In this document: piece after piece, positions 47,994-64,000 of the stretch
How the letters are laid out: each line of letters begins with the position of its first letter
Numbering within the stretch: the first letter of the stretch is position 1
Origin: Botryosphaeria dothidea
Taxonomy: Eukaryota > Ascomycota > Dothideomycetes > Botryosphaeriales > Botryosphaeriaceae
Length of the DNA: 64,000 nt
Direction of reading: 5' to 3'
Assembly: GCA_011503125.2 (NCBI GenBank)
Contig: WWBZ02000016.1
Location: forward strand, 310,001-374,000
Notes under the pieces: generated by a model
Told to the model about the DNA's origin: nothing
The model's input: only the letters and a program-made list of their open reading frames with translations
Database searches by the model: none
Translations under genes and position numbers: made by a program

Positions 47994-48674
47994 CTTCGGG
48001 AAGTGGCTTCGGTGCTGATAGCTGTCGACCGTATAGCGTAAAGACGGGGGCAGGGGTTTGATGTAGGAATTTCCTTTGTTAGACGAGATTGCGGGGTTGT
48101 TGAATCGTGTTCAGCTATGTGATACCAGTGGCGTTGGAGGTTTTCGATCCGTGTAACAGGCTCGGAGAGGAGAATGTAGGCAGTTGCAGATCGAATGCGC
48201 TGGAATGCGGGACCGCGGGTGTTTGAATGCCTTCAAAATTATTAACTTCAATGCTGGACGCATTGTCCTCCTCATTGCCGGCATTGCAATGCCTAATATT
48301 TCCTTGTTCTCGCCAAATGGAAACTGTACACGAGAGGTGACATGGTACAAGGTACTCGGTGTTGATGGCGTGGGGCAGCGAAACAATAAGCTTAGACAAG
48401 TGCAGGCTTCAGATCCGGGCGCTCCACCAATACCCGGTGTATCTGCTGGGGTCATTTTCTTTTCAGACATGACGTCGGTCTCAACGGCATCGCAACGGCA
48501 TGCGAAGGGTGAGTTGAAGCATCGACCTGGATGTAACCTTTGAAATTACTTGCATTCAGTTTTCTAGGAATTCTTCAATCCCTGGCACCGCCAGATTTGA
48601 CTGTCCAAAATCCAAATACAGGAGACGTTTCGTTGCGTAGCTCTTCATGCATCATGTACTTCCATAACTCATGC
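47994..48674. other. Intergenic, carboxypeptidase promoter and 3' region of lactonase A
   Basis: About 0.7 kb. Contains one TGCGGGG (48090-48096), the reverse complement of the CCCCGCA motif seen in the cluster to the right, 97 bp before the carboxypeptidase start. No supported gene. Confidence 0.5.
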
Positions 48675-49748
48675 TTACAAGTATGAATCCGGCGCGCTCT
48701 TGTATTGTGACAGCGTCTCCACACAATGCCCCAATATCACCTTCGCATTCGTTCGTTTCGCCAGCCTCTTTATCATCTGGTTGCTCTGTACCCATGAGTC
48801 ATGTTCCCTGGCAAGCCACCCTTGGGGAATTGAGCTCTCCCAGTTCTCCTTCACGTGGTACATGTCCGAAGTGAGGATCCAAGTGCCACTCTCTCGCAAG
48901 TTGATTTGCAGAATGCACAACCCCGGGGTATGGCCAGGGGCGTGATGAATGTTAAGCCCAGGCGCCAGCTCGAGAAATCCACCATGGAAAGTCTGCCAGT
49001 TTAGGTCGAACCGCAGATAATGAGGAAGGTAACACCCTGTCCACTTGTTATTCAATCTGATCATCAACTCTAGAATCGCTTGCGTGTACCGTAATCGGAA
49101 CCCGTTGCCACAGAGTAGAATGCGTTCTTGAGTTCCTTTTCATGGACGTATATTGGAACATTCGTTCCGAAGAAATACTCCAGACCGCCCGCATGATCAG
49201 TGTGGAGATGGCCCAGAACGACTGCCTTGATGTCTTTCACACTGTGTCCTGTCTTTGCAATAGCTTTGTCGAGATCCTGTTCTTCGTCATATTCGATTTG
49301 AGCAAAAACATCGTTCGTTTGAGGCTATTGGCGGCGTGTCAGAAATACCCAGGTTGTTACTATGAAGAAAGTGCAAACTGACTCCTACTACCTCTGCACA
49401 GAGCAATCAGTCTTGACATCCAACTTCAAGTAAGTAATCTATCCTACCTGGATAGTTTTTCCCAGTTCCAGTCTCAAACAGTACGAGGCCTTCTGTAGGG
49501 TGTTCTATCAAAGCTGAGATGGCCACCAGCTTTCGTCGTGCGCGTGGCGGGTTTGGATTACTTCGAGTAGAGAGATTGCCTCCCCCCTGAAGAACATCAG
49601 AGTCTATTGACGACGGTTGCAGGTGGTGTAACAAACGTTCTGGAATAGGAAGCCAACGTCGCATTCCAAGTATCCAAGATTCAGAAGCTTGTGTCACTCC
49701 TATCAGATTCGACTAGCGCACGGAGATGGTTGGGGGGACTGCACCCAT
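48675..49748 (-). CDS. Metallo-beta-lactamase-fold lactonase A
   Basis: Zinc hydrolase of the AHL-lactonase-like group. The metal motif is complete: VVLGHLHTDHAGGLEYF (HxHxDH), then HHAPGHTPGLCIL, the bridging Asp in LTSDMYHVKEN, and the last His in ILGHCVETL. Probable start is ATG 49748, with a 45-bp intron directly after ATG-G giving MGVTQASESW. An in-frame TAG excludes reading straight through. The final intron (53 bp, before CYLPHYLRFDLNW) is clean. The junction around 49330-49450 needs a weak donor (GAA|GTTGGA) to stay in frame, so this model is tentative there. Divergent from the MFS gene at 50333, which suggests co-regulation. Confidence 0.72.
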
Positions 49749-50332
49749 AGTTTCGTTCCCTATACATGTCAGCGCAAGTACAGCACACCATGACGGCAGA
49801 GGCACACCTCCGGAGCACAATTAACCAGGTCCAGACAGTTCGCCATAATGGTCGGAGCTGGAGAAGATGCCAGAATTACCTAAGGTCCTTTCGGAACAGA
49901 CGCATATCCTGGCAAAAGATACAGACCCACTTTTGGGCAGTCGAGGGAACATATACCGTGAAGGAATGAGGCGCGACTACCGGCACTTGCATCGCAACAG
50001 TATTATCCGAATGGATCCTGGTGCCAATGCCTGGAAGAGCGGGGCATGGTTGATGGCGCATCTTCCCCGCATTTTGGGGTCTCACAACCTTCGGGGGACG
50101 GGTAGATCCAGCCTACCCATCTTGACCTCCGAGCCGGCCTTGCCACTTCTCCCCCATGAGTCAGACGCTGAGCACAAAGGAATAGATGAACATGGTGAAA
50201 GCAGGAAACTGGTAGCTGCAAGATTGATGATCGGCTAAGAATTTCCCGTGCTTGTCACACTGTGTTACCTATATCTCGCCCGACCTGGAGGTCGTTGGGA
50301 TTTTTCATTCTCACCCTCCATCTCTCCTCAGC
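49749..50332. promoter_or_regulatory. Divergent promoter, lactonase A / MFS permease
   Basis: 584 bp. A 123-codon plus-strand ORF (49867-50238) is present but has no motif and sits where two promoters are needed, so I do not call it. It holds one CCCCGCA element. Confidence 0.5.
50065..50071 (+). promoter_or_regulatory. CCCCGCA element
   Basis: Flanks TTCCCCGCATT. It lies 262 bp before the MFS start and 317 bp before lactonase A. Part of the set shared by all promoters of this cluster. Confidence 0.55.
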
Positions 50333-52103
50333 ATGACTACCTCCGTTGCGGACGAAAAACTTGGCGCCGAGTTTCAGGAATACGCAAACGATGAATCTGT
50401 GCATGATGTGGCGCTGAGAAAAAGAGAGGCAGCGCTGGTGCGGAAACTGGATTGTTTCATCGCACCAGTGATGATGCTTCTCATGCTTATCAGTTACCTG
50501 GATCGAGGCAATATTGGCTTTGCTGCAACACAGGGTATGGCGGAGGATATTGGTCTGAAGGGGTCTCAATTGAACGTAAGTGCATCGCGCAAGAGTCATC
50601 AACACCGTAATCTAATGAATCGGGCATGATAGACGGCGGTGTCGGTCTTCTACATCTTCTACATCCTCGCAGAATTCCCGACATCCATCCTCGTCAAACG
50701 GCTCCAATTCAATCGTGTCATCCCTACAATAACATTCTGCTGGGGCATCGTGTGTCTGTGCACTGGATTCATCCGTGGGTTCGGTGCGCTTGTCGTGACG
50801 CGGATATTGCTGGGGTTCTTCGAAGGTTGTCTATTTCCATCCATGACACTGTTCCTCTGCAATTGGTACAAGCGCGAAGAGCTGGCGGTCCGTGTATCAT
50901 ATCTGTTCAGTAAGTACTGTGCGGTGGAACGGTTGAAGGGCTCACAACTGACAACGATCCAGTTGCATCTGCGCTCTCCGGTGCGTTTGGTGGCCTCCTC
51001 GCCTGGGCGATCTTGTACATGGACGGAGTATCTGGATATCCAGGATGGCGATGGTAAGGACCTGTCACGCCACTTTGCAAGTCAATATCGCTCACATCAT
51101 ACCAGGTTATACATCATCGAGGGAATCATCACTGTCATCTGGGCCGCGATATGCATCTTCGTGGTGCCAAAGAATTACGAAACAGCATATTTCCTTAACG
51201 ACGAGGACAAGGCCTTGATGAGGCAACGTGCCGAACACATGGAAGCCTACAGTGGCGGTTCTGGACATTACGGGAAGAAAGACATCAAGGAAGCGGCCAC
51301 TGATGTCAAGAGTTGGCTTCACGGAGTAATCCAAATAGCAGCAGTTACAATTCTGTACGGCAAGTCTTCACCCTACCCGTTCCACATCACAATCCGGCTA
51401 CTGACTCTGGTGAAAGGCTTTGGCACGTTTCTGCCAATCATCATCAAGAACGGATTCCATTACTCCACCGTGCAAGCACAATACCTGGTGATTCCCGGTA
51501 TGCTGTATGATCCTTATGTCCGGCACACTACTGACAAAATTCATAGTCAATCTGTGGGGAGCCCTGGTCTACGCCGTGGGTGCGTTCTTGAGCGACAGGT
51601 ATCAAACGCGTTTCTATCCCTTGATCATCTGCGCTCCGTTTGGCATCGCTGGCTACGCGATATGCCTCGCACCAGTCTCAGCCGGTGTGCAGTACTTCGC
51701 AACATACCTCATCGCTACCGCGTGCTTTCTCTGCACGGGCGGGAACATGTAAGACTGTCCATCCGAATCTCGACTATCTCCACTGACATCTGGCAGCGCC
51801 TGGCTCTCAGGAAACTGCGCACCGGACGGGAAGCGGGCAGCAAGTTTGGGGATTCTTCTCACCCTCACGAATATTGGAGGTGTGGTCGCCGGCCAGATTT
51901 ACCAGACGAACGCTGCTCCTCGCTTCTTCCTCGGCCATGGCTGGTCACTCGGGTGTCTTGCCTTTGCGTGGTGTGGGTGGTGGGTAGTACGGTTGATTTA
52001 TAAGCGGAGAGAGGCATGGAAGGATAATGCATTGGCAGAAAGGGTTATTGTCCCGCCAGAGCAATATACTGACAGGGCTCCCGATTTCAGGTACATCATT
52101 TGA
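50333..52103 (+). CDS. MFS permease, allantoate/anion:cation symporter type (Dal5-like)
   Basis: Imports organic anions such as allantoate, carboxylates or vitamins by proton symport. Seven exons (50333-50575, 50633-50909, 50963-51053, 51106-51359, 51417-51497, 51547-51748, 51797-52103) sum to 484 aa. TM1 ends in the family signature ISYLDRGNIGFA. Motif TAVSVFYIFYILAEFPTS and LLGFFEGCLFPSMTLFLCNWYKREELAVR are typical of Dal5-like carriers, and LTLTNIGGVVAGQIY marks TM11. The fourth intron (51360-51416) has a GC-AG boundary with a good TACTGAC branch site. The N-terminus is acidic and cytoplasmic. Importer class plus neighbouring hydrolases suggests uptake of the cluster's substrate. Confidence 0.9.
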
Positions 52104-52200
52104 AGCGGAGAGAACAGGACTGGTCGGAAGGTTGTGAACCATACGCTTTGACTGCATATATTTTTACGTACACAACGGATGCACTTTTTCTGCGGCCCAA

Positions 52201-53039
52201 CTAATGAGGAGTCGAGGTAGCAAGGATTGGAGCTGCGACGTGTGCAGTGTGCAAACTCAGAAGTGAAGCAATCTCAAGCACCTCTGTGATCTCTTCTGGG
52301 GTTGCCCCGTACCCCAGCGCGTTCTTCATGTGGAGCTTCAATCCTGGCACGTAGAGATGTGTTGCGGCGCAGTCGAAAGCGCAGTACATCAACTCTTTGA
52401 GCTGTTCCGATAATAAGCATTGATCATAACCGTGAAGTGACAAAAGGTTACCTTGGGCTCTAGCGCTCCCTTTCCAGACCCATTCACGTCTTTTGTCCAG
52501 GGCACGGAGGAGAAATCCAAGTAGGCCTCGAAGAACTCCGGATCCAGGCACAGGAAGTCCTCCCAGAATTGGTGCCAATAGCCCCTCTTTGCGGTGAAGT
52601 CAGCTTTCAGCCTCTCTCGATACTCATCGAACGGGGCACCGGCGGTAGGGTGCTTTTCGTAGATTCCTTCCTCCTTCATAACTTCGACCAAGAGAGGCAC
52701 TCCGATGTTGCAGGCATGGATACCCAGCGAGCTTGTCAACTCGATTACTTCCATCACCTCATCCGTGGTGGCGCCCTCTTTCAATGCCTCTTTGATATGG
52801 GCCTGGATTCCCGGCACGTACAGGTGGGTGGACGCACTGTCGACGGCTATCGATATCAAGTGCTGGACTTTGAGTGGGAGATGTCTCTTCTTCCTCGGTA
52901 CGGCTCTGAACTTCATGCCGGCTTCGAAGAGCTCCGGGCTCAACTGCAAGACACTTTGCCATCCATTGTCGAATGCTGCGTCTCCAAATTCCTTCTTGAA
53001 CTGATCCTTCAATCTGGCCTGATCTGTAGGTGAGGTCAT
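52201..53039 (-). CDS. Double-domain carboxymuconolactone decarboxylase (CMD/AhpD-like) protein
   Basis: Exons 53039-52452 and 52401-52201 (50-bp intron) give 262 aa. The protein is two tandem CMD domains. Each repeats the signature A-x-T-H-L-Y-V-P-G: DSASTHLYVPG in the first half and DCAATHLYVPG in the second, each followed by a helix-rich segment (EGATTDEVMEVIELTSSLG and GATPEEITEVLEIASLLS). There is no CxxC pair, so peroxidase activity is unlikely and decarboxylase- or isomerase-like chemistry is an inference. The first ATG (53039) is used; an upstream GTG is in frame. Its promoter has three CCCCGCA copies. Confidence 0.87.
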
Positions 53040-53169
53040 TTTGGTTTCTGCGATTGCTTCTGTCACAATTGGGGAAAATGGGCATTCCCAAAGGACTACG
53101 AAATCTCACGATCCTGCTACTTACTTTCGTCGTGGACTGTTAAACTATTGCCCCACCCTCAACAAATTA

Positions 53170-53186
53170 CCCCGCATCACCCCGCA
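53170..53186 (+). promoter_or_regulatory. Two CCCCGCA elements spaced 10 bp
   Basis: Copies at 53170-53176 and 53180-53186, one helical turn apart on the same face, about 130-150 bp before the double CMD start. Confidence 0.6.
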
Positions 53187-53266
53187 GTGGGTCCGGATTT
53201 CCTCATGCAGTAATCGACGGCCATGTGAAAACAGATCCCTACACACCCTTCTCCATCTCTCCATTG

Positions 53267-53273
53267 CCCCGCA
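53267..53273 (+). promoter_or_regulatory. CCCCGCA element
   Basis: Third copy in the double CMD promoter (TTGCCCCGCATG), 228 bp before its start. Confidence 0.5.
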
Positions 53274-53507
53274 TGAACTGCGTTTACCAGAGTCGTGGTC
53301 ACGCTGCACGACGCTCGCTTACGCAGCGGATCCAAGCAGCCGCGCCAGACACACACCCGGCGAACGCACGCAACACCGCATCCAGTACCACATTTCCCCG
53401 GTACAGAGAAAAAACACACCCAAACAGAACCCGATAGAAAAAACACGCCCTCCCAAAAAAGAACACACCCAGCCCACCCCTCCCACCACTCGTTCCCCAT
53501 CGCCCCA

Positions 53508-54540
53508 TCACCCGCGCCCCGCCCCGAAAAACCGGGCCCCCTCCCGCCGCTCCCACTCCACATCGTGCGCAAACACCACCTCGACGCCCCTCGCCTCCAG
53601 CCCCCTGATCCGCTCGATCGTCGCCTCCGCCTCCCGCCGGTCCGCGTGGATGCAGCACACCGCGCCCCGCTCGTCCCGCCACTCCCCGATCGCGCGCTCG
53701 CCGCGCAGGATCCGGCGGTCGTGGCACGCGTCGCCCGCCAGGTACATCCACGCGCCGGCCGTGCGCGTGAGCAGGTTGACGTGGCCGGGCAGGTGGCCCG
53801 GGGCGTCGACGACGAAGAGGGCGGCGTCGCCGAAGACGTCGAGGGCGTGCGGGAGGCCGAGGGCCGGGAGGGGGCGCCAGGTGCCGGTGGGGAAGGCGAG
53901 CTGGGCGGCGTCGTGCGGCGAGGGCAGCTCGATGGTGCGGCGCGGGTCGAGCAGGTCGCGCTCGAAGAAGGAGTGCCCGCCGCGCAGGGCCGGCGCGTGC
54001 GTGCCGTCGAGCAGGGCGAGCGCGCCGTGGCCGGTTATGAAGGTCGTGTGCGGGAAGTCGCGCGGCTCGCCGATGTGGTCCCAGTGGACCTGTTGCGGGA
54101 GGGTTAGTTGGAGGGGAGGGGAGGGGAGGGGAGGGGAGGAGCAGGGGGAGGAGGTCGTGTACGTGGGAGTAGATGATGTAGTCGATGTCGGAGGGTTTCA
54201 GGCCGCCGGCTGCGAGGCTCTTGACGACGTCTGGGTCGGTGGACAGGGGCTGGCGGGTGGCGACATGGCGGCGGATGGGGTCTGCGTAGCGGGAGATGTC
54301 TCGTCGGATGCCTAGGTCGAAGAGGATGCGGGTTCTTTTGCCGGTCTTGGAGTCTACGTGCTGAATGAGGAAAGCGAGGGACGGGACGGTGTTTCGGGCT
54401 TTGTCTGAAGCTGGGTTGACGAAATGAGCCTCTGGAAGAGTGAGATGGCCTGCAGAGAGAGCGTGGACTTGGACGGTGGCTTTCTCGTCGAGAGTAGGGA
54501 ACAGTGGGTGCTGTGTTTCGGTCACGGCTATGGAAGACAT
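53508..54540 (-). CDS. Metallo-beta-lactamase-fold lactonase B
   Basis: Zinc lactone hydrolase of the AHL-lactonase-like group. Exons 54540-54163 and 54089-53508 give 319 aa. The N-terminus matches the family (VQVHALSAGHLTLPEAHFV). The 73-bp intron falls inside the metal motif: exon 1 ends IIYSH and exon 2 begins VHWDHIGEP, so HxHxDH exists only after splicing. Then VVDAPGHLPGHVN, YLAGDACHD (bridging Asp) and VVFAHDVEWE (last His). Reading through the intron gives a 416-codon frame whose second half is nonsense Arg/Pro/Ala. Clear paralogue of lactonase C at 60515. Divergent from the CMD gene at 55379. Confidence 0.9.
54110..54140. repeat. (GGGGA)n microsatellite inside lactonase B intron
   Basis: About six GGGGA units on the + strand. 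On the transcribed (minus) strand it forms the pyrimidine-rich tract near the intron's 3' splice site. Confidence 0.85.
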
Positions 54541-54613
54541 GGCGAACAAAGCAGTCTATTCATCTTAGCGTCCCCCAACCTGGAAGGAGTGAGCATTTAT
54601 CGTTCCAATTGCG

Positions 54614-54620
54614 CCCCGCA
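54614..54620 (+). promoter_or_regulatory. CCCCGCA element
   Basis: 74 bp before lactonase B start (GCGCCCCGCAAA). Confidence 0.5.
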
Positions 54621-54678
54621 AATTGTGAGCGCTGAGAAGCTAAGGGAGTGGCCTACGGGCAATGGTGTACGGACTTTG

Positions 54679-54685
54679 CCCCGCA
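54679..54685 (+). promoter_or_regulatory. CCCCGCA element
   Basis: 139 bp before lactonase B start (TTGCCCCGCAGT), the same local context as the copy at 53267. Confidence 0.5.
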
Positions 54686-55167
54686 GTAGGGATCAGCAAA
54701 ACCCGAGACACATCCCGTACTTGTTCCCGTAGACTATTTCCACGGCGGGTGTAAAAAACGGGCTTCCTGGCTCGGACGGGCAGTTTATCCCGGCATCCAA
54801 CTGAACGATCATTCGAAAGGCTTGATGTGAACCACATTTAGTGGTAAGATTTCTGATTGGCACCATGGTTCCCTGAGTTTCCGTGTGTATAATGGTGGAA
54901 TTGATTGGCCAAGCACCGTGTTACACGTCGTCATAACAGTGCCATGCTAGCCGCTAACAGTACACAAAATGGCCCTGGGTATGCCGATCAGAGGACGGGC
55001 CTTGCAGAGTATAAACATTTGAGACCGTCCCTACATCAAAATACGGTTTCCCGGGCCCCGGCGATGATTCGGTTTGCAATGTTAATCTATATTACTCTTG
55101 GAATGGTTGTGATTCCTCATTCCATTGGTATTGGTGTCGTCATTGGTCGAAGTGGGGCTCGGGGTAA

Positions 55168-55174
55168 CCCCGCA
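55168..55174 (+). promoter_or_regulatory. CCCCGCA element
   Basis: 205 bp before the CMD start. It sits in a small palindrome, GGGGTAACCCC. Confidence 0.5.
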
Positions 55175-55378
55175 GCCGACAGAAATGACCCCCCTCCCCA
55201 AGCCTCTCAGCCGCGAAAGTCATAGAGTTAAACGCCTTTTCGTAGCCAAAAAGTTTCTTGTTCAGTCCCCAGTGCTTCACCGGACGAGCCGTTGACCTCG
55301 ACTTTTACCACATCTATTGCGACTATTCAGGGCCACTCAACACTTTCCAATAATTCTTTGCACACAAAAGCCAGCACC

Positions 55379-55825
55379 ATGAGCACAGAGCCCAAGCTGG
55401 ATGCTCTGCACAAGCAGCTCTTCGAAGAAGGGCTCAAGATGCGGCGCAGCGTCGTCGGCGACTCCTACGTCGACCGGGCGCTCGCCAACGGCTCGACCGA
55501 ATTCTCCAAACCCGGGCAGGAATTGACCACCGAGTGGTGCTGGGGCTACGCGTGGACGCGGCCGGGGCTGGAGAAGAAGCAGCGGAGCTTGCTGAACATC
55601 GGCATGCTGATGGCGCTGAACCGCGCGCCGGAGCTGGCGGTGCACATCCGCGGCGCCAGGAACAACGGGCTGACCGAGTTGGAGATCCGGGAGGCTATCC
55701 TGCATTGCACGACCTACTGTGGCGTGCCGGCGGGAGTGGATGCAATGAAGACGGCGGAGAAGGTGCTGGATGAGATGGCCGAGAAGGGCGAGAAGCCGCG
55801 GGAGCTTGGGAAGAAGATTGCGTGA
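55379..55825 (+). CDS. 4-carboxymuconolactone decarboxylase-type protein (single CMD domain)
   Basis: The family converts gamma-carboxymuconolactone to beta-ketoadipate enol-lactone in aromatic catabolism. Intronless, 148 aa, the normal PcaC length. Landmarks: [18 protein letters not shown] at the N-terminus, [19 protein letters not shown], and [19 protein letters not shown] with [11 protein letters not shown]. The open frame extends back to 55292, but without an ATG; the ATG at 55379 (ACC-ATG-AGC) fits the family start. Divergent from lactonase B, followed by the C2H2 regulator in the same direction. Use in a different lactone pathway is possible, since fungal clusters recruit this fold widely. 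Confidence 0.9.
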
Positions 55826-56218
55826 GAGCACGGATGCAGCCGCATGAAACCTTCAGCATAAAGAAAGGCCCACTATGCCTGTAATTAGACCCAAGGAAAA
55901 TTCATCGCAGGCCCTTCATGGGAGGAAATCACCAGGATCCGAGATACGGAGAGCTGAAGTGAATGATCGGATGTGTGTTCCGTCTCACATGTGTGTGCCT
56001 TTGACCTCCCATTGCTCAACGAGCTGGCCGCTGCAACAATCGTCCAAACGGAGACGCACGAAGGGCCGAAACTGCAGATCACTGGACGTGGCCAGTGCCG
56101 AGGCGGAAAGAAAAACGCCTCCGCAGCCGCAGAATGTTTTACATATGGTTCCCCGCATCTCCGCATTCCTCCCCAACGACGCCCTCCGCTCCTTTCCTCG
56201 CCCCATCTCACCTCAGAT
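55826..56218. promoter_or_regulatory. Promoter of the C2H2 regulator
   Basis: 393 bp between the CMD stop and the regulator ATG. Contains one CCCCGCA copy close to the start. Confidence 0.5.
56151..56157 (+). promoter_or_regulatory. CCCCGCA element
   Basis: 68 bp before the regulator start codon, so the regulator may control itself. Confidence 0.5.
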
Positions 56219-58917
56219 ATGCCCCCGACGGAATTGCTCGACGGGGTAACTGAGCATGAGGAGGCCCGACCGGCTCCCAAGAAGCCCAAGCGCTTCCAGT
56301 GCCGCCGGTGCCAGAGGCTCTTTGCCCGCCTGGAGCACTTGCAGCGCCACGAAAGAACCCGTACGCCCTAGCGCCATCCTCGATGAGGCCGCCTGACTCT
56401 TACGGATCGTAGATACACAGGAGAAGCCATTCCTATGCGATCAGTGCGATTCTCGCTTCACCAGAAGGTACAGAAGAACGTTGTTGCGTGTGTGGCGAGC
56501 AGCCTTGCTGATGTATCTGCCCGTGCAGCGACCTCTTGATCCGTCATGAGAGGCTCTCGCACAACAAAGATGTCTCCAAAAGGAAAGCCAACAGGGAATA
56601 CGTGGCCGAGGACTCAGGCTCACAGAAGAGCGACAAACGGGTGAGAATTGCTTCCACCGGCAATGGGGACCGCTCTGACTCGCCGTCTTTGAATTTGCGA
56701 AACTCGCCATTCCCGGCAACCCTGGCTTCAGGTCCGGCCATGTCCATGGAAACAAGCTTCCACTCGCCGTTGGTGGCCCTTTCTTTCGCTGCAGAGCAAA
56801 GCGCCTTCCAGGATGCCCTGGCTGCATCGTCTCCCCATCCCTTCGGCGTGGCCTCAGACACCTTTCAGCAAATCGCACACGTGGATTCCTTGCCCCAGTC
56901 AACAACGGTAGGAGGCTCTGCGCCACCTGCAGAACCAGACTTCTCCGAGACACTAGACAGCCTCGCGGCTTTCCTCGAAAACGAGCCACTCTCATCATAC
57001 CACTTCTCATCCACCATCACTGCCGAACAACCTGTGCCGTTCTTCTCACCCGAGTCCATCCTAAACTCCACCGAGTTTGACACCCACTATGGTGCACACG
57101 CACACCCGGCCTTTAGCCAAAGCCACAATGCAGAAGAACCAAACTCATTCTCCCGATTTGGATCGCGGCTCCCGTCACTTCAACCGGAGGAACAGCCAAC
57201 TGATAAAGGTCATCGGCCGACAGCTGCACGTCCCATCTCAGACATCTCAAACGAAGATAGACAGAGCATCCTTGATCGGATGGCCGAGTTTACTTCTGTC
57301 ATTCCACCAGACTTTCGGCTTCCGTCGCGATTGGCTTTGTCACGATACATTGGCGCCTACATCAACGGCTTTCACGAGCATCTGCCCTTCCTGCATATAC
57401 CCACCATGACTGTTGAAAATACCGCAGTGGAACTCCTCTTGGCACTGGCGGCTGTTGGCGCGCAGTACTGCTTCGAAGCTGAAAAGGGAGTTGAACTCTT
57501 CCACACTGCACGAGCAATTTCGAACCAACGCATCAGGAGAAGAGATGCAAGCCTGGCGTGCCCGAACAGAGACTTCGACTTCCTCAGTCGACCGAGTCCC
57601 GGCCAATCTCGACAGCACTCGAGCCGGAGCAGCTCCGTCAACGGGCCCCTCGGTCTACCTTCTGATCTGGAGCAGCCAGCAGCCAAAGACAACCTGATCC
57701 CGACGGCACAGGCGCTCCTCATCCTCATGGCCATGGCAACGTGGGCCAAGCACAAGGAGATCCTCCGCGAAGCCCTGGCAATCCAAAGCATCCTCGCCAC
57801 CCTCGTCCGCGACGACGGCCTGCGCAGCCCACCCATCCCCGCGGACATCACATGGGAAGAGTGGGCGGCGCAGGAGTCCCGCACGCGCACCAAATTCATC
57901 GTCTTCTGCTTCTTCAACCTGCACTGCATCGTCTACAACATCCCGCCGCTCATCCTCAACTCCGAGCTCAAGATGCGCCTCCCCTCCAACGCCACCGAGT
58001 TCAAAGCCGCCTCCGCCGCCAAGTGGCACGAAGCCCGCAAGCGCACCACCCCCACGCCCGGCAGCAGCCCCGACTTCCCCTCGGCGCTGCGCCGCCTCTT
58101 CTCGCGCGGCGGGCGCGACACGGCCGAGTGCACCTCGTCGCTCGGCAACTACATCCTCATCCACGCGCTGATCCAGCACATCTTCTTCGTGCGGCAGACG
58201 GCGCGCTGCCGCTTCGCGTCGGCGGGCGAGCTGACGCCCGACGACGTGGCCTCGCTCGAGCACGCGCTGCGCAGCTGGCAGCTGGGCTGGAAGCGCAACC
58301 CGGAGTCGTCGCTCGACCCGCTCGACCCGAACGGGCCCGTCGCCTTCAACAGCACCGCGCTGCTGCGCCTGGCCTACATCCGGCTGAACACGGACACGGG
58401 GCCGGGGCGCGCGCTCGACACGCGCGACCCGGCCGCCGTCGCGAATGCGCTGCGCGACGCGCCCGACGTGCGGCGCACGCCGAAGCTGGTGCGCGCCGTG
58501 CTGCACAGCGCGCACGCCCTCAGCATCCCCGTCAAGATCGGGATCCGCCTGGTCGCGCGCACGCAGACGTTCATCTGGAGCATCCAGCACAGCCTGTGCA
58601 GCCTGGAGTGCGCGTTCCTGCTGAGCAAGTGGCTCGAGGCGCTGTCGCGGCCGCGGCCGGAGCCGCCGGTGAGCGAGGACGAGAAGAGGATTGTGGGGCT
58701 GGTGCGGACGATGCTGGACGAGACGGAGTTTGCGGTGCCGGCGGCGTTGGGGCTGGGGGAGCGGGGCGAGGAGGAGCTGCCGGAGCTGGCGAGGCGGTTG
58801 AATGCGGGCGTGTTGAGGGTTTGGGCGACGATTTTCAGGGGCGCGCAGACGTGGGCGCTGGTGGATGTGATTGGGAGTTCGTTGAACATTTACGCGGATA
58901 TGCTGGAGCCGGGGTAG
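56219..58917 (+). CDS. C2H2 zinc-finger transcription factor with fungal_trans domain
   Basis: Likely pathway regulator of the surrounding cluster. Exons 56219-56360, 56413-56467 and 56529-58917 give 861 aa. Two tandem C2H2 fingers at about residues 22-75 are assembled from three exons: CRRCQRLFARLEHLQRH, linker HTQEKPF, then CDQCDSRFTRSDLLIRH. A basic stretch follows (SKRKANREY; KSDKRVR), a likely nuclear signal. The fungal_trans domain begins near residue 330 (LSRYIGAYINGFHEHLPFLHIP) and runs to about 700 (LRLAYIRLNTD). Two adjacent C2H2 fingers usually bind GC-rich sites of 5-7 bp, which would suit the CCCCGCA elements. Third-position GC is very high in the last kilobase. Confidence 0.92.
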
Positions 58918-58925
58918 TGCTGTGG

Positions 58926-58998
58926 GGGGGGGGTGGTGATGAGGCATCTGCATTCTGCATTCAAGGATACCAAAAAGAAGAGGGGGGGGGGGGGGGGG
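58926..58998. repeat. Poly-G tracts
   Basis: A 9-10 nt G run from 58925 and a 17-nt G run at 58982-58998, just downstream of the regulator's stop. Length is prone to sequencing error. Confidence 0.8.
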
Positions 58999-59152
58999 CT
59001 TGTGGTCTTTCGATGAAGTAATTCACTTCGCTACGGGGAAGTGAAGCAAACGGTCAGCTCCAATTCTATATAGTGACATACAGGACGTCCACGTTTCGAC
59101 ACTTTCTTTTCACCCCACAGCAAGCCTACGCATACCGCCACGAACAGCCTCC

Positions 59153-60222
59153 CTACTTCCTCTCACTCTCATTCAACCACTTATACACCACCCGCGCATC
59201 CTTCCCCCTATACCGTTCATCCGCACTCGCCTCCCCAAACGCCTCCAACGCCACCCCATCCAACACCGTCCGCGCCCCCACATCGCCCGCCAACTCGCTC
59301 CCCATCTTCAGCACCTTCCGACACAGCTCGATCCTGAACCCGCCCTCGTACCCGCGCGAGCTCGGCACGCCCTCCTGCACGCCCGGCACGGGGTTGCTCC
59401 TGCTCGTGACCCAGCACTGCCCGCCGCTCGCGTTGATCACGTCGGTCAGGACCTTCGGGTCCAGGCCCATCTTGACGCCGATGTTCAGCGCCTCCGCCGC
59501 CGCCAGCGACGTGATGGCCGACAGGTAGTTGTTGATGATCTTGAACGCGGTGCCCGCGCCGACCGCGCCGCAGTGGAAGAGCGCGTCGCGCTTGCCCATG
59601 TGCGCGAGCAGCGGCGCCGCGCGCGCGAAGGCGGCGGGCGTGGGCGCGCCGACCATGAAGGTGAGGGTGCCGGCGACGGCGCCCATCGGGCCGCCCGAGA
59701 CGGGCGCGTCGACGAAGGTGGGGCGGTGCGGGGCGGGGAGGGCGGAGACTGCGGCGGCGACGGAGAGGATGGTGGCGGTCTCGATGGTGCCGCATTCCAT
59801 GAGGAGTTTGGAGGAGGGGGAGGAGGACGTGCCGGCGAGGATGCCGGTGGCGGGGTCGAGGTAGACGGCTTTGACGGCGGCGGAGTCGGGGAGCATGGTT
59901 ATGATGACGTCCTGCGGGTGGTTAGGCTGTTGGTGGTGGGGGACGGGTGGCTTTTACTGCTGCTTTGGCGGCTTCGAGGCCGTTGGTGATGACTTGGACG
60001 GGGCCTTGGTCGGCGGTTTCCTCCTGGAAGCGGGTGATGGCGGCTTGGTTGACGTCGCAGATCAGGAGGGTCTGGTCGGGACTGAGCCCTTTGCGCAGGT
60101 TTTTGGCCATTGGGTAGCCCATCACACCGAGGCCTGCAGTGAAGTTAGCAAGTGAAGAAATTCGATTCGCAGGAAAAGCTCATGGTACCTATAAACGCCA
60201 CTGTGTTTGCTGGAGAGGCCAT
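59153..60222 (-). CDS. Beta-hydroxyacid dehydrogenase (3-hydroxyisobutyrate dehydrogenase-like)
   Basis: NAD(P)-dependent oxidation of a beta-hydroxyacid to the semialdehyde or keto acid (or the reverse). Exons 60222-60189, 60133-59958 and 59911-59153 give 322 aa. The first 11 codons (MASPANTVAFI) are a separate exon that completes the dinucleotide motif with GLGVMGYPMAKNL. Substrate-binding signature DAPVSGGPMGA, catalytic Lys in GAGTAFKIINNYL, and an intact C-terminal helix domain. No mitochondrial presequence is visible, unlike the valine-pathway enzyme, so a cytosolic pathway-specific role is inferred. It converges with the C2H2 regulator; a CCCCGCA copy lies 171 bp before its start. Confidence 0.92.
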
Positions 60223-60392
60223 AATGTGGACAGTATGTGCAGGTTTTCGATCACTTTGATTGTGAGAATAATATGGATGAGGGTCTGAACAAGGTAGCTC
60301 AGTGCTTGCTGGGTGAGCAAAGACAGTGGTATGCATGTTTTGTTCGTGCATTTTCCGTAGCAGGAGCTCTGTGCCATGTGGAGGATGCATTA

Positions 60393-60399
60393 CCCCGCA
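60393..60399 (+). promoter_or_regulatory. CCCCGCA element
   Basis: 171 bp before the beta-hydroxyacid dehydrogenase start, in the 292-bp gap before lactonase C. The gap holds nothing else recognisable. Confidence 0.5.
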
Positions 60400-60514
60400 C
60401 CACCGAAGGCGGGGACTACAGGGTATTCACTTCCAATCATTTTCAAATCCATTGGACGAGTGCAAAGATTATAATGGTCATCTTGCTGGCTTGACTGAGG
60501 TCTATCAAAATCTC

Positions 60515-61477
60515 TCATAGATGCCCAGGAAAGAACCTATGCCCATTCCCCTCCCTCCACTTCTTATCATGCGCCACCACGACCTCCACCTCCGCCGCCT
60601 CCTCCCCACCGACCCTCCCCTCGCTCAGAAACTCGCCAATCCGATCCAGCGTCGCCCTCGCCTGCTCCGTGTCCACATGCACGCTCCTCAACCCACCCTT
60701 CCCATCATCATACAACGCGATCCCCTTCTCCCCCGCCAGAATCCGCGGATCATGACAGCAATCCCCACCTAAATACACCCACCTCCGCTCGCCCACCCGC
60801 GCCAGCACATTCACATGCCCGTACAGATGCCCCGGCGCATCCACGACCCACAAACTCCCGTCCCCAAAGTAATCAATCGCGGCCTCAAACCCGCCCAGTC
60901 GCACCCACGCGTGCCCCGTCCGCTTTTCCTCCGGGGCCGCCCGCACCCGCGCACCGCCGGGCGCCCCCTCGTCCGCAGCCCCGCCCAGAACGGGAGGCAG
61001 TTCGAGAGTGCGGTCGAGCGGCAGCTCGTCGGCGTTGAAGATGGCGGCCGGGTAGAGCGGGCCGGCGCCGCGGGCGAGCACGTCGAGGGTGCCGGGGCCG
61101 ACGACGAAGGTGGCGCGGGGGAAGTCGGCGGGCGTGCCGACGTGGTCCCAGTGCACGTGGCTGAGGAGGACGGCGGTGATGGCGGCGGCCGGGTCGAGGT
61201 GGCCGGCGCGCAGGCTGGCGGCGACGTCGGGGGCGGTGGTGAGAGGGCGGCGCTGGTCGATGTGGTGCTGCTGGGCGGGGGCGTAGGCGGCCAGGTCGCG
61301 CTTGAGGCCGAGGTCGAAGAGGAGGCGGGTCGAGGTCGGGGCGTGGTGGATGAGGAAGGAGAGCGAGGGGACGGTCGTGCGGGTGGTGGGCGGGGCGGAG
61401 GCGATGAAGAGGTTCTCGGGGAGGGTGAGGTGGCCGCCGTCGAGGGCGGAGACGGTCACGGTGGTCGGCGACGGCAT
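60515..61477 (-). CDS. Metallo-beta-lactamase-fold lactonase C
   Basis: Intronless, 320 aa. Same architecture as lactonase B: VTVSALDGGHLTLPENLF, TTVPSLSFLIHH, LLFDLGLKRDLAAY, metal motif LLSHVHWDHVGTP (HxHxDH), DAPGHLYGHVN, bridging Asp in YLGGDCCHD and the last His in VVAHDKKW. All five metal ligand positions are present. It lacks the intron that divides SH|VHWDH in lactonase B. No signal peptide. A Gly/Ala/Arg-rich insert (about residues 170-185) differs from B. Divergent from the zinc alcohol dehydrogenase across 380 bp. Confidence 0.93.
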   Translation of the reverse strand: MPSPTTVTVSALDGGHLTLPENLFIASAPPTTRTTVPSLSFLIHHAPTSTRLLFDLGLKRDLAAYAPAQQHHIDQRRPLTTAPDVAASLRAGHLDPAAAITAVLLSHVHWDHVGTPADFPRATFVVGPGTLDVLARGAGPLYPAAIFNADELPLDRTLELPPVLGGAADEGAPGGARVRAAPEEKRTGHAWVRLGGFEAAIDYFGDGSLWVVDAPGHLYGHVNVLARVGERRWVYLGGDCCHDPRILAGEKGIALYDDGKGGLRSVHVDTEQARATLDRIGEFLSEGRVGGEEAAEVEVVVAHDKKWREGNGHRFFPGHL

Positions 61478-61558
61478 GGTGGTCGGCGGGTTGCTGGGAC
61501 GGCGGGCATGGTGTTGGTGATGGCAGTGGGTGGGTGGTCAATTGCCGAGTTGGTGGAT

Positions 61559-61565
61559 CCCCGCA
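61559..61565 (+). promoter_or_regulatory. CCCCGCA element
   Basis: 82 bp before lactonase C and 293 bp before the alcohol dehydrogenase start (GATCCCCGCATT). Confidence 0.5.
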
Positions 61566-61857: not shown

Positions 61858-62997
61858 ATGCCATCACTCCCGCCCCAAATGCGCGCCCAAGCCCTCACCG
61901 CCTACAACGAACCCTACACCCTCCTCACCACACCTCTCCCCACCCCGACCGCCCCCAACGACATCCTCATCAAAGTCACCGCAGCCTCCTACTGCCACAC
62001 CGACGCCGTCCTCGCCTCCGGCCAAATGCCCAACCTCCCCTCGTCCTTCCCGCACATCGGCTCCCACGAATTCGCCGGCACCGTCCTCGCCCACGCCCCT
62101 TCTCCCTCGCCGCTCGCCACGTCCCTCGCCCCCGGCACCCCCGTCGGCGTGCCCGGCCGCTCCTTCCGCCCCTGCGGCACGTGCTTCGAGTGCGCGAAGG
62201 CCGCCGCGAACGCGCAGGACGACGACGCAAAGGGTTACTCGGTGTACTGCGCGGGCGGCGCCGAGAACCTCGGCGTCAGCGTCGACGGCGGGTTCAGAGA
62301 GTACGCCGTCGTGGATGCGCGGCAGGTTGCGGTGCTGCCGGACGGCGTGAGCGGCGTCGAGGCGAGCGTGCTGATGTGCGCGGGCGTAACGGTGTTTGCG
62401 GCGCTGAAGCGCGCGGGCGTGGGGCCGGGCGGGAGGGTCGGCGTCGTTGGCTGTGGCGGCGGGCTGGGGCATTTGGGGTTGGCGTTTGCGGTGGCCATGG
62501 GGTTGCGCGTCGTGGGCGTTGAGAGCGCGGATGCGCCGTTGGCGCTGGCGAGGGGACTGGGGACCGGGGCGTGGGTGGTGGATGCGAGGGAGGTGGAGGC
62601 GGCCGAGGTGGTGGAGAAGGTGGGGAGGGAGGACGGGAAGGAGGAGCGGGAGCATATGGGGCTGGATGCGGTGATTATCCTGCCGGAGAGTCAGAAGGCG
62701 TTTGATTATGGGATGGCGTTGTTGAGGCGGCACGGGAAGTGTGTGGTTGTGTCGTTTCCAGAGAAAGGCTTCCATGTCTCTGCAAGAGATCTGGTGTTTC
62801 GGGACATTTCAGTTGTGGGGAGTCTGGTCGGGAGTAACAAAACGCTGAAGGAGATGTTGGAATTTGCAGCCAAGCATCAGGTCAAGGCTAAGATCAGGAC
62901 ATTCCCGTTGTCACAGCTGAATGAGCTCGTGGAGGAATATCATAAGGGAGGAGGTGGAAAGCTGGTCATTGACATGTCTCTTGAAAATGGCGATTGA
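61858..62997 (+). CDS. Zinc-dependent alcohol dehydrogenase (MDR superfamily)
   Basis: Oxidises an alcohol or reduces an aldehyde with NAD(P)(H). Intronless, 379 aa from ATG 61858 (AACAACC-ATG). Catalytic zinc ligands: Cys in AASYCHTDAVLASG and the His-Glu pair in HIGSHEFAG. Structural zinc cysteines: RPCGTCFECAK with a further Cys at SVYC. The Rossmann motif is GVVGCGGGLGHLGLAFA, followed by the charged GLRVVGVES. C-terminal landmarks are normal (DISVVGSLVGSNKTLKEML; GGGGKLVIDM). Divergent partner of lactonase C, so a hydroxyacid or aldehyde released after lactone opening is a reasonable but unproven substrate. Confidence 0.94.
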   Translation: MPSLPPQMRAQALTAYNEPYTLLTTPLPTPTAPNDILIKVTAASYCHTDAVLASGQMPNLPSSFPHIGSHEFAGTVLAHAPSPSPLATSLAPGTPVGVPGRSFRPCGTCFECAKAAANAQDDDAKGYSVYCAGGAENLGVSVDGGFREYAVVDARQVAVLPDGVSGVEASVLMCAGVTVFAALKRAGVGPGGRVGVVGCGGGLGHLGLAFAVAMGLRVVGVESADAPLALARGLGTGAWVVDAREVEAAEVVEKVGREDGKEEREHMGLDAVIILPESQKAFDYGMALLRRHGKCVVVSFPEKGFHVSARDLVFRDISVVGSLVGSNKTLKEMLEFAAKHQVKAKIRTFPLSQLNELVEEYHKGGGGKLVIDMSLENGD

Positions 62998-64000
62998 GCG
63001 GGAATTTCTCAAAAATCCTCAATCTCGCGTTTCTTGCGTATTTCACTGGCTACGCCGGGAGAGTCCAATTCTGTTTCTCCTGATGTGCTGAGGCTTGCTT
63101 CCATGCACTTTTCCACACAATCTCCATCAGCAGAAGATTACTCTTCTTTGATCCAGGCTTATCAATTGTTTGATCAGATACCAGCCTTACAAGCAGCCGA
63201 GCCAGGCTGAAACTTCATGCGGATAGCAGTCCGTTGCATCTTATCAGCTATGAGGGCTGGAGACGGCACAGTCAGCCGATATCAAATTGGCACGATTGGT
63301 TTGGCCTTATGTTATTTGCTAGGACTGTAGTATTAAAAAGAACTTAGATATAAATCTATAGGTACATACATGGAAACGGCCGGTGCGGCATTAGTCAGCA
63401 GCCCTTGAAAGCTGTCCCCCGCCCCGTCGCTCTTCGTCTCGCTCTTCTCGACAAACTTCATCACTCTGGTACTCCTCCTCACGCCACTATCTGCCTTGCG
63501 CACTTTGAAAGAGCCTAGGCAACCGTGCCCCACTCGTAGCCTCATGTTACCACCCTCGATGAACGCGATGCAGCCGCACTCCGGCCACGTCATCTCCGAT
63601 AGTCCGTGTTGATGCTCAGCCACAACACTGCTCAACGAACAACGGCCTATCATAGCAGCGCTCCTCCAGATATTCCGCTCAGCCTTGCCATGATGTGCTG
63701 GTCGAGAGCACAGGGCAGGTTCTGCAGGGAAAAAAAACCCCCCCCCCCGGTCTTAAAGCGGGCCTTGGTAAGTTTTTAAACAGTTGCCCTTCCTCCTCGT
63801 ACATACATTTTGCTGTTTTCCGCCGCTTTGTTCGTCAATTTTCCCCGCCATTGTACTTTTATCTTTGGCATTCTCTCTTACCTCACGAGCCTGCCGTCAA
63901 GTGTGCACAACAGTTATCCGTGCGAAGCAACGCAGCCATGCCTTAGGCAGAAAAGGGGAAGGGGAAGGCATTGGTTAAGAACCTGTGTGATGTGTGCCGT
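62998..64000. other. Intergenic to window end
   Basis: About 1 kb. A 106-codon minus-strand ORF (63333-63653) lacks motifs and is not called. A poly-A/poly-C junction lies near 63731-63748. No gene supported. Confidence 0.5.

What the first reader, a model, noticed from the sequence alone, without database searches (positions are those of the whole stretch)
50065..61565. A shared 7-bp element, CCCCGCA, in every promoter of the lactonase cluster
Ten exact CCCCGCA copies lie in the non-coding gaps of the 49.7-61.9 kb block: 50065, 53170, 53180, 53267, 54614, 54679, 55168, 56151, 60393, 61559. Together these gaps are about 3 kb, where well under one copy per strand pair is expected. My manual count over the rest of the window found roughly eight on both strands in about 60 kb, near chance. 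Every gene of the block has a copy upstream, all ten are on the + strand, and two are one helical turn apart. The block contains a regulator with two C2H2 fingers, a type that binds short GC-rich sites. I infer this is its operator and that the block is one regulon.
Basis: partly seen in the sequence, partly recalled or inferred. Interest (0 to 1): 0.86.

Follow-up and report, generated by a model that had tools for sequence, protein, structure and literature searches.

The report
Shared promoter element in fungal catabolic cluster
A seven-letter DNA word recurs ten times in the promoters of one fungal catabolic gene cluster, far more often than chance, and it matches the known type of site bound by two-finger zinc-finger regulators such as the one encoded in the cluster, though the general glucose repressor reads the same word.

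Summary
All ten CCCCGCA copies are where stated, on the + strand, in intergenic DNA, at least one in each of six promoter regions. In those 3,036 bp, 10 copies stand against 0.26-0.45 expected; it is the most over-represented 7-mer there, and none of its 21 one-base variants exceeds 2 copies. The host is a filamentous ascomycete, probably Botryosphaeriaceae. The regulator at 56219-58917 has two C2H2 fingers and a PF04082 domain. The word is not new: Mig1/2/3 are reported to bind CCCCGCA (PMC3534124), S. pombe Rst2 binds CCCCGCAC (PMC6827382), and the site predicted for the cluster regulator HxnR, GHGGGG (PMC8478523), includes its complement. So 'its operator, one regulon' is plausible and has a precedent, but is unproven: CreA, present in this genome, reads the same core. 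I favour an auto-regulated activator sharing its sites with CreA, as proposed for Rst2 and Scr1 in S. pombe (PMC6440086). No DNA of orthologous clusters was found, so conservation is untested. Ordinary in kind; useful as a sharp, testable regulon prediction.

The parts
50065..50071 (+). CCCCGCA copy 1, between lactonase-like gene 3 (-) and the MFS gene (+); 268 bp upstream of the MFS start
   Evidence: exact match; distance
53170..53176 (+). CCCCGCA copy 2, 131 bp upstream of CMD-family gene 1 (-)
53180..53186 (+). CCCCGCA copy 3, 10 bp from copy 2
53267..53273 (+). CCCCGCA copy 4, 228 bp upstream of CMD-family gene 1
54614..54620 (+). CCCCGCA copy 5, 74 bp upstream of lactonase-like gene 1 (-)
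54679..54685 (+). CCCCGCA copy 6, 139 bp upstream of lactonase-like gene 1 (-)
55168..55174 (+). CCCCGCA copy 7, 211 bp upstream of the PcaC-like gene (+)
56151..56157 (+). CCCCGCA copy 8, 68 bp upstream of the regulator's start codon
60393..60399 (+). CCCCGCA copy 9, about 170 bp upstream of the HIBDH-like gene (-); the only one of the ten that reads CCCCGCAC
61559..61565 (+). CCCCGCA copy 10, 82 bp upstream of lactonase-like gene 2 (-) and 299 bp upstream of the Zn-ADH (+)
56219..58917 (+). two-finger C2H2 + PF04082 regulator; exons 56219-56360, 56413-56467, 56529-58917; 861 aa
   Evidence: open spliced frame, 862 codons with stop; PF04082 E 1.1e-12; orthologues
48675..49665 (-). lactonase-like gene 3 (metallo-beta-lactamase fold), hand gene model
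   Evidence: PF00753 E 0.0012, under its cut-off; AiiA/AhlS-type models E 2e-14 to 4e-13, under cut-off; both on the exon 48675-49139
50333..52003 (+). MFS transporter gene, hand model with several introns (3' end approximate)
   Evidence: PF07690 E 1.5e-14 on 50633-52003
52201..53039 (-). CMD-family gene 1
   Evidence: PF02627 E 1e-8
53508..54540 (-). lactonase-like gene 1, intron(s) present
   Evidence: 47-51% identical to gene 2; PF00753 E 0.0067, under its cut-off
55379..55825 (+). PcaC-like 4-carboxymuconolactone decarboxylase family gene
   Evidence: PF02627 E 3e-19; TIGR02425 135.6 bits, cut-off 155.7
59153..60222 (-). 3-hydroxyisobutyrate-dehydrogenase-like gene
   Evidence: PF14833, PF03446; TIGR01692 212.5 bits, cut-off 291.6, on one exon
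60515..61477 (-). lactonase-like gene 2
   Evidence: PF12706 E 1.6e-6; AttM model E 1.5e-12, under cut-off
61858..62997 (+). zinc-binding alcohol dehydrogenase gene
   Evidence: PF00107, PF08240

Best explanation
The ten CCCCGCA (5'-TGCGGGG-3' on the other strand) are a homotypic set of binding sites for two-finger C2H2 proteins that read a G-N-G-G-G-G core. The likeliest arrangement is that the cluster's own regulator (56219-58917) binds them, activates the nine genes when an inducing (probably lactone or aromatic-derived) substrate is present, and reinforces itself through the copy 68 bp before its own start, while CreA occupies the same sites when a better carbon source is present. Shown here: the excess, the positions, the exact word, the two-finger + PF04082 architecture and its helices, a CreA orthologue in the genome. 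Taken from print: that Mig- and Rst2-type proteins bind this word and that the two types may compete in S. pombe. Inferred: binding by this protein, activation, the inducer, the competition here.
For: Top-ranked 7-mer, 10 against 0.35 expected; none of the 21 one-base variants above 2 copies. Nearest copy 68-400 bp upstream of each of nine gene starts. Fingers RLEHLQR / RSDLLIR. In the 120 listed orthologue sequences (of 633 hits), my pattern saw a first finger in 48, reading RLEHLQR in 43 (three of the other five are finger-2 helices caught by the pattern), and a second finger in 38, reading RSDLLVR 23, RSDLLIR 10, RSDLLTR 3, RRDLLIR 2. HxnR, a pathway-specific C2H2 + PF04082 regulator of a catabolic cluster, has a predicted site GHGGGG found upstream of all its target genes but one, and upstream of itself (PMC8478523, passages); GHGGGG is 18 against 5.9 expected here, 10 of the 18 being TGCGGGG. 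Rst2 is listed as the binder of CCCCGCAC and as orthologue of budding-yeast Adr1 (PMC6827382, passages). Scr1 and Rst2 share promoters and may compete there (PMC6440086, passages). The regulator-lactonase pairing is old: 25 longest-contig lengths are shared between the 119 regulator hits with a contig and the 120 lactonase hits that were listed, with locus tags 1-2 apart in five species, and some annotated proteins fuse the PcaC-like and/or HIBDH-like gene with the regulator (P0004, P0005, P0065, P0094). Two close paralogous regulators have copies before their own apparent starts (C12 about 236 kb: 64 and 174 bp; C10: about 415 bp; worked out by hand).
Against: No binding or expression data. 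Helix position 3 in finger 2 is leucine, whereas CreA has glutamate there, the residue that by the textbook code (recalled) reads the C of GCG; the predicted GAGGGG and GTGGGG forms are near background (3 each against about 2), so the cluster's word is narrower than the prediction. Over seven other 20-kb neighbourhoods of relatives of the regulator there are 22 copies, about 21 expected at the genome rate; only two (7 and 8, about 3 expected each) are raised, the next closest relatives have 0 and 2. A region without such a regulator in what I examined (C4 788-808 kb) also holds 7 copies, but it was picked for its paired sites.
Confidence: 0.58

Rival explanations
1. The sites are CreA sites only: the cluster is a set of genes under general carbon catabolite repression and its own regulator binds elsewhere.
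For: Mig1/2/3 are reported to bind exactly CCCCGCA (PMC3534124); CreA consensus SYGGRG contains GCGGGG (PMC8844935); a CreA orthologue is at C58:790689 with a 98% identical finger region and helices RLEHQTR/RSDELTR. Glutamate at the key position of finger 2 fits the C in GCG better than the cluster regulator's leucine (recalled code).
Against: The seven other SYGGRG hexamers together are at background in these promoters: 15 seen, 14.9 expected. The SYGGRG consensus does not ask for the A after CCCCGC, yet 10 of 12 CCCCGC here have it and CCCCGC[CGT] is at chance. Ten sites over six promoter regions of one small cluster is far denser than the genome rate.
Confidence: 0.25
2. The sites serve another of the two-finger C2H2 factors of this genome, for instance a relative of the regulator, a Klf1/AN6733-type or a stress factor.
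For: At least five further loci match the regulator over its PF04082 part, several with similar finger helices; the CreA finger query has 29 matches in the genome.
Against: STRE-type AGGGG is not raised (3, expected 4.75), so a Msn2-type factor is unlikely. The cluster encodes its own two-finger factor next to the likely targets, and the linkage of regulator, lactonase and PcaC-like gene recurs in other fungi.
Confidence: 0.12
3. The excess is chance or base composition picked out by eye.
Against: Survives correction for all 7-mers, a Markov null and the genome-wide rate; one-base variants are flat; flanks beyond the word are not alike, so it is no duplicated segment.
Confidence: 0.03

Closest known systems
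HxnR and the nicotinate (hxn) regulon of Aspergillus nidulans
   Same: A pathway-specific C2H2 + PF04082 regulator encoded inside the catabolic cluster it controls; a site of GHGGGG type predicted upstream of all its genes but one, itself included (PMC8478523, PMC5746545, passages).
   Different: Different enzymes (nicotinate breakdown against lactonases, CMD/PcaC-like, HIBDH-like); the hxn site was predicted from the fingers, here the word stands out from the DNA itself and is narrower (TGCGGGG). Orthology between the two regulators was not tested.
Rst2 (S. pombe) and Adr1 (S. cerevisiae)
   Same: Rst2 binds CCCCGCAC (PMC6827382, Table 1) and CCCCTC (PMC6440086); the ADR1 finger structure is among the sequence matches of the window's fingers (2adr_A, E 4.2e-15).
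   Different: Rst2 is a carbon-starvation regulator of many genes, not a cluster-borne one; only 1 of the 10 sites here carries the eighth base C.
CreA / Mig1 / Scr1 carbon catabolite repressors
   Same: CreA and Mig1 bind SYGGRG (PMC8844935); Mig1/2/3 reported to bind CCCCGCA (PMC3534124).
   Different: General repressors with a degenerate site (CreA: 2,182 target sites in PMC8844935, about half with SYGGRG); the other SYGGRG forms are not enriched here.
AmdA and AmdX of A. nidulans
   Same: C2H2 regulators (AmdA with two fingers) acting on amdS or positively, by the titles seen; an orthologue of the window's regulator is named 'related to C2H2 transcription factor (AmdA)' (P0010).
   Different: I saw reference-list titles and one list naming AmdX; their sites could not be read here, so no site comparison was made.
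FDB1/FDB2 detoxification clusters of Fusarium verticillioides
   Same: Fungal clusters for breakdown of lactam/lactone-type xenobiotics; both papers mention lactamases (PMC4726666 and PMC10512309, listing and abstract starts only).
   Different: Gene content not compared; neither paper holds the words carboxymuconolactone decarboxylase.

Membership tests
Regulon with a shared cis-element | Element over-represented in the promoters of the group against the genome | tested here: met
   10 in 3,036 bp, P 7e-11 by genome rate; top 7-mer
Regulon with a shared cis-element | Element conserved in orthologous clusters | not testable with these tools
   No orthologous fungal DNA found: 0 relatives in viral contigs and genome contigs with alignment A1 of 8 regulators; metagenome scans are capped at 0
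Regulon with a shared cis-element | Genes co-expressed and dependent on the regulator | not testable with these tools
   No expression data
HxnR/ADR1-type two-finger C2H2 + PF04082 regulators | Two C2H2 fingers with helices R-x-E-H-x-x-R and R-x-D-L-L-x-R (pattern taken from this genome and recalled ADR1), followed by PF04082 | tested here: met
   Spliced protein; PF04082; orthologue P0002 annotated PF13465/PF00096 + PF04082
HxnR/ADR1-type two-finger C2H2 + PF04082 regulators | Predicted GHGGGG site in target promoters | tested here: met
   18 against 5.9 expected, 10 of them TGCGGGG; the other forms 8 against about 5.6; relaxed GNGGDG 38 against 27.2
CreA regulon | Excess of SYGGRG in general | tested here: not met
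   Only GCGGGG raised (12, expected 1.9); the other seven forms 15 against 14.9
CreA regulon | CreA present in the organism | tested here: met
   C58:790689-790859, 98% identity over the fingers
Adr1 site TTGGRG (recalled consensus) | Excess of TTGGRG | tested here: inconclusive
   7 against 4.1 expected
Mig1 site | AT-rich flank next to the GC box | tested here: inconclusive
   Flank counts at +7 to +14 show no consistent AT tract; the rule was recalled and a title on it seen in a reference list

The most novel reading that the evidence does not exclude
The PF04082 two-finger regulators borne in catabolic clusters (HxnR-like) have evolved a strict heptamer, TGCGGGG, that is also a CreA site, so that each cluster carries one element read alternately by its own activator and by the general repressor: a built-in induction/repression switch on a single word, kept in every promoter of the cluster.
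Probability: 0.3. Interest if true: 0.55.

Novelty: new member of a known kind. Interest (0 to 1): 0.36.

Why it matters
The sites of HxnR were predicted but not determined by experiment in the paper read here (PMC8478523, passages). This cluster gives, from the DNA alone, a sharp candidate word for a cluster-borne regulator of that architecture, and a short list of probes and promoters. It would help to assign targets to similar fungal regulators and to test whether pathway activator and CreA share one site.

Tried and rejected
Chance and composition were tested three ways and rejected. Duplicated promoter segments: flanks share nothing evident beyond the 7-mer. STRE (AGGGG) is not raised. 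Other shared words in the promoters: simple repeats (ACACAC, TCTCTC and longer) rank near or, at lengths 6 and 8, above it. Orthologous cluster DNA: none found in viral contigs or genome contigs (the tool says that records very near the window's genome may be left out); the phage, plasmid and E. coli collections were not searched. Near-identical copies inside the assembly as a conservation test: C4/C11 are 100% identical over 19,339 bp and C3/C12 99.8% over 19.5 kb, so they look like assembly redundancy and carry no information. A region of paired sites without the regulator (C4 788-808 kb: ankyrin, HET, FMO-like, amidohydrolase ORFs among six scanned, and no C2H2 finger pattern) shows that the word also clusters elsewhere. 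Pathway identity: not settled; the search for a published cluster of this gene content listed four papers, none of which I opened. Background limits: my local background was 149.6 kb (window 1-48600, 63001-64000 and ten 10-kb loci, the latter flanks of the regulator's relatives and not random), its non-coding share 34.7 kb by a crude ORF mask; it holds 14 copies where the genome rate would give about 22, and the backwards word 26, so the genome rate is the more cautious yardstick. Duplicates L027/L028 and the loci L021, L022, L029, L030, L037-L040 were left out of it. The genome rate is for all DNA, not for promoters alone. Gene models are by hand.


Full report
Setting. The window is G000:C12:310001-374000 of a 51.68 Mb assembly in 78 contigs. 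It is a filamentous ascomycete: genes have introns, and the closest named relatives of the regulator are Neofusicoccum parvum (81%), Macrophomina phaseolina (81%) and Diplodia (68%), so it is probably a member of the Botryosphaeriaceae. The best hit of all (99%) has no name.

Observation. CCCCGCA occurs 18 times in the window: the ten listed and eight others. All ten listed are on + and lie in intergenic DNA of my hand-made gene models: between lactonase-like gene 3 and the MFS gene (1), before CMD-family gene 1 (3, two of them 10 bp apart), between lactonase-like gene 1 and the PcaC-like gene (3), before the regulator (1), before the HIBDH-like gene (1), between lactonase-like gene 2 and the Zn-ADH (1). 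The nearest copy is 68-400 bp before each of the nine start codons, counting shared divergent promoters.

Chance. The genome holds 3,780 + 3,962 copies, the backwards control word 2,744 + 2,924. At that rate 10 in 3,036 bp of promoter has P 7e-11, 11 in 11.5 kb P 2e-6, with 0.009 such 11.5-kb windows expected in the genome. Against a 149.6 kb local background CCCCGCA is the first of 2,366 7-mers (10 against 0.35; P 5.5e-12), and none of its 21 one-base variants exceeds 2 copies. Simulated promoters never reached 10 (0 of 2,000), and their best 7-mer never exceeded 7 (300 simulations). The local background is not a random genome sample, and the genome rate is for all DNA, not for promoters alone.

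The regulator. With introns 56361-56412 and 56468-56528 the gene at 56219-58917 reads through as 861 residues with two C2H2 fingers whose helices are RLEHLQR and RSDLLIR, followed by PF04082. In the orthologues in which my pattern found them these helices vary little (43 of 48 and 38 of 38 of the expected type). By sequence the fingers match many solved C2H2 proteins, ADR1 among them.

What the word is. It is a known one. [quoted passage not shown] S. pombe Rst2 binds CCCCGCAC, and Rst2 is given there as orthologue of Adr1 (PMC6827382, passages). HxnR, a pathway-specific C2H2 + PF04082 regulator inside the nicotinate cluster of A. nidulans, has a predicted site GHGGGG, not determined by experiment in that paper (PMC8478523, passages; PMC5746545, passages). 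CreA reads SYGGRG (PMC8844935, passages). TGCGGGG satisfies all of these, save that 9 of the 10 copies lack Rst2's eighth base.

Which protein. For the cluster's regulator: position next to the likely targets, the right finger class, a copy before its own start, the precedent of HxnR, and old linkage to the lactonase and PcaC-like genes (25 shared longest-contig lengths between 119 and 120 listed hits; locus tags one or two apart in Mollisiaceae sp., Plenodomus lindquistii, Kalmusia sp., Exophiala sideris, Rhinocladiella mackenziei; annotated proteins fusing neighbours with the regulator in Diplodia, Kalmusia and Stemphylium). Against it: leucine at the middle contact of finger 2 and little or no excess of the other predicted forms. 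For CreA: exact match and presence in the genome. Against CreA alone: the other seven SYGGRG forms are at background, 15 against 14.9. The two are not exclusive; in S. pombe Scr1 and Rst2 may compete at shared promoters (PMC6440086, passages), and that is the model I prefer.

Internal replicates. Besides the window's own gene, the regulator search gave matches at C10, C12:1.97 Mb, C3 (with a near-identical copy at C12:3.18 Mb), C12:234 kb and, more weakly, at C1, C36 and C18. Counts of CCCCGCA in 20 kb around them, in that order and without the near-identical copy: 7, 0, 2, 8, 3, 1, 1, together 22 where about 21 are expected. The two raised ones belong to the relatives with the highest identities (43% at C10; 42-55% over pieces at C12:234 kb, against 38% for the next), each with copies before the relative's own apparent start. 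The C10 locus also holds an ADH 47% identical to the window's, with four copies in the roughly 850-bp gap to the next ORF upstream (6115, 6337, 6396, 6714 of L021). This is suggestive and was noticed after the fact.

Verdict. It is a new member of a known kind.

Noticed in passing
window 50065-61565: All ten copies are on the + strand although the genes they precede run in both directions (two-sided P 0.002, seen after the fact). No mechanism known to me explains it.
   Followed up: partly
window 48090-48096 (- strand): A further copy lies about 100 bp before the apparent start of the neighbouring gene on the left, which looks like a serine carboxypeptidase by eye (not tested).
   Followed up: no
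L029 2302-2323 and L030 2158-2274 (G000:C12 about 226 and 236 kb): About 74 kb left of the window a related two-finger regulator has two CCCCGCA before its apparent start, and a nearby carboxylesterase gene has a pair 15 bp apart.
   Followed up: partly
G000 C4:788-808 kb against C11:263-283 kb; C3:1466-1486 kb against C12:3166-3186 kb: Near-identical stretches on different contigs (100% over 19,339 bp; 99.8% over 19.5 kb); C36 and C78 give equal hits too. The assembly appears to hold redundant contigs.
   Followed up: partly
L038 4547-4566 and L037 4654-4802: A region with an FMO-like and an amidohydrolase ORF and no two-finger regulator in what was examined also holds paired CCCCGCA (7 copies in 20 kb; picked for its pairs).
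   Followed up: partly
proteins P0004, P0005, P0065, P0094: Annotated proteins of Diplodia, Kalmusia and Stemphylium join a PcaC-like and/or HIBDH-like domain to the regulator; most likely gene-prediction fusions, they suggest that these genes are neighbours there too.
   Followed up: partly
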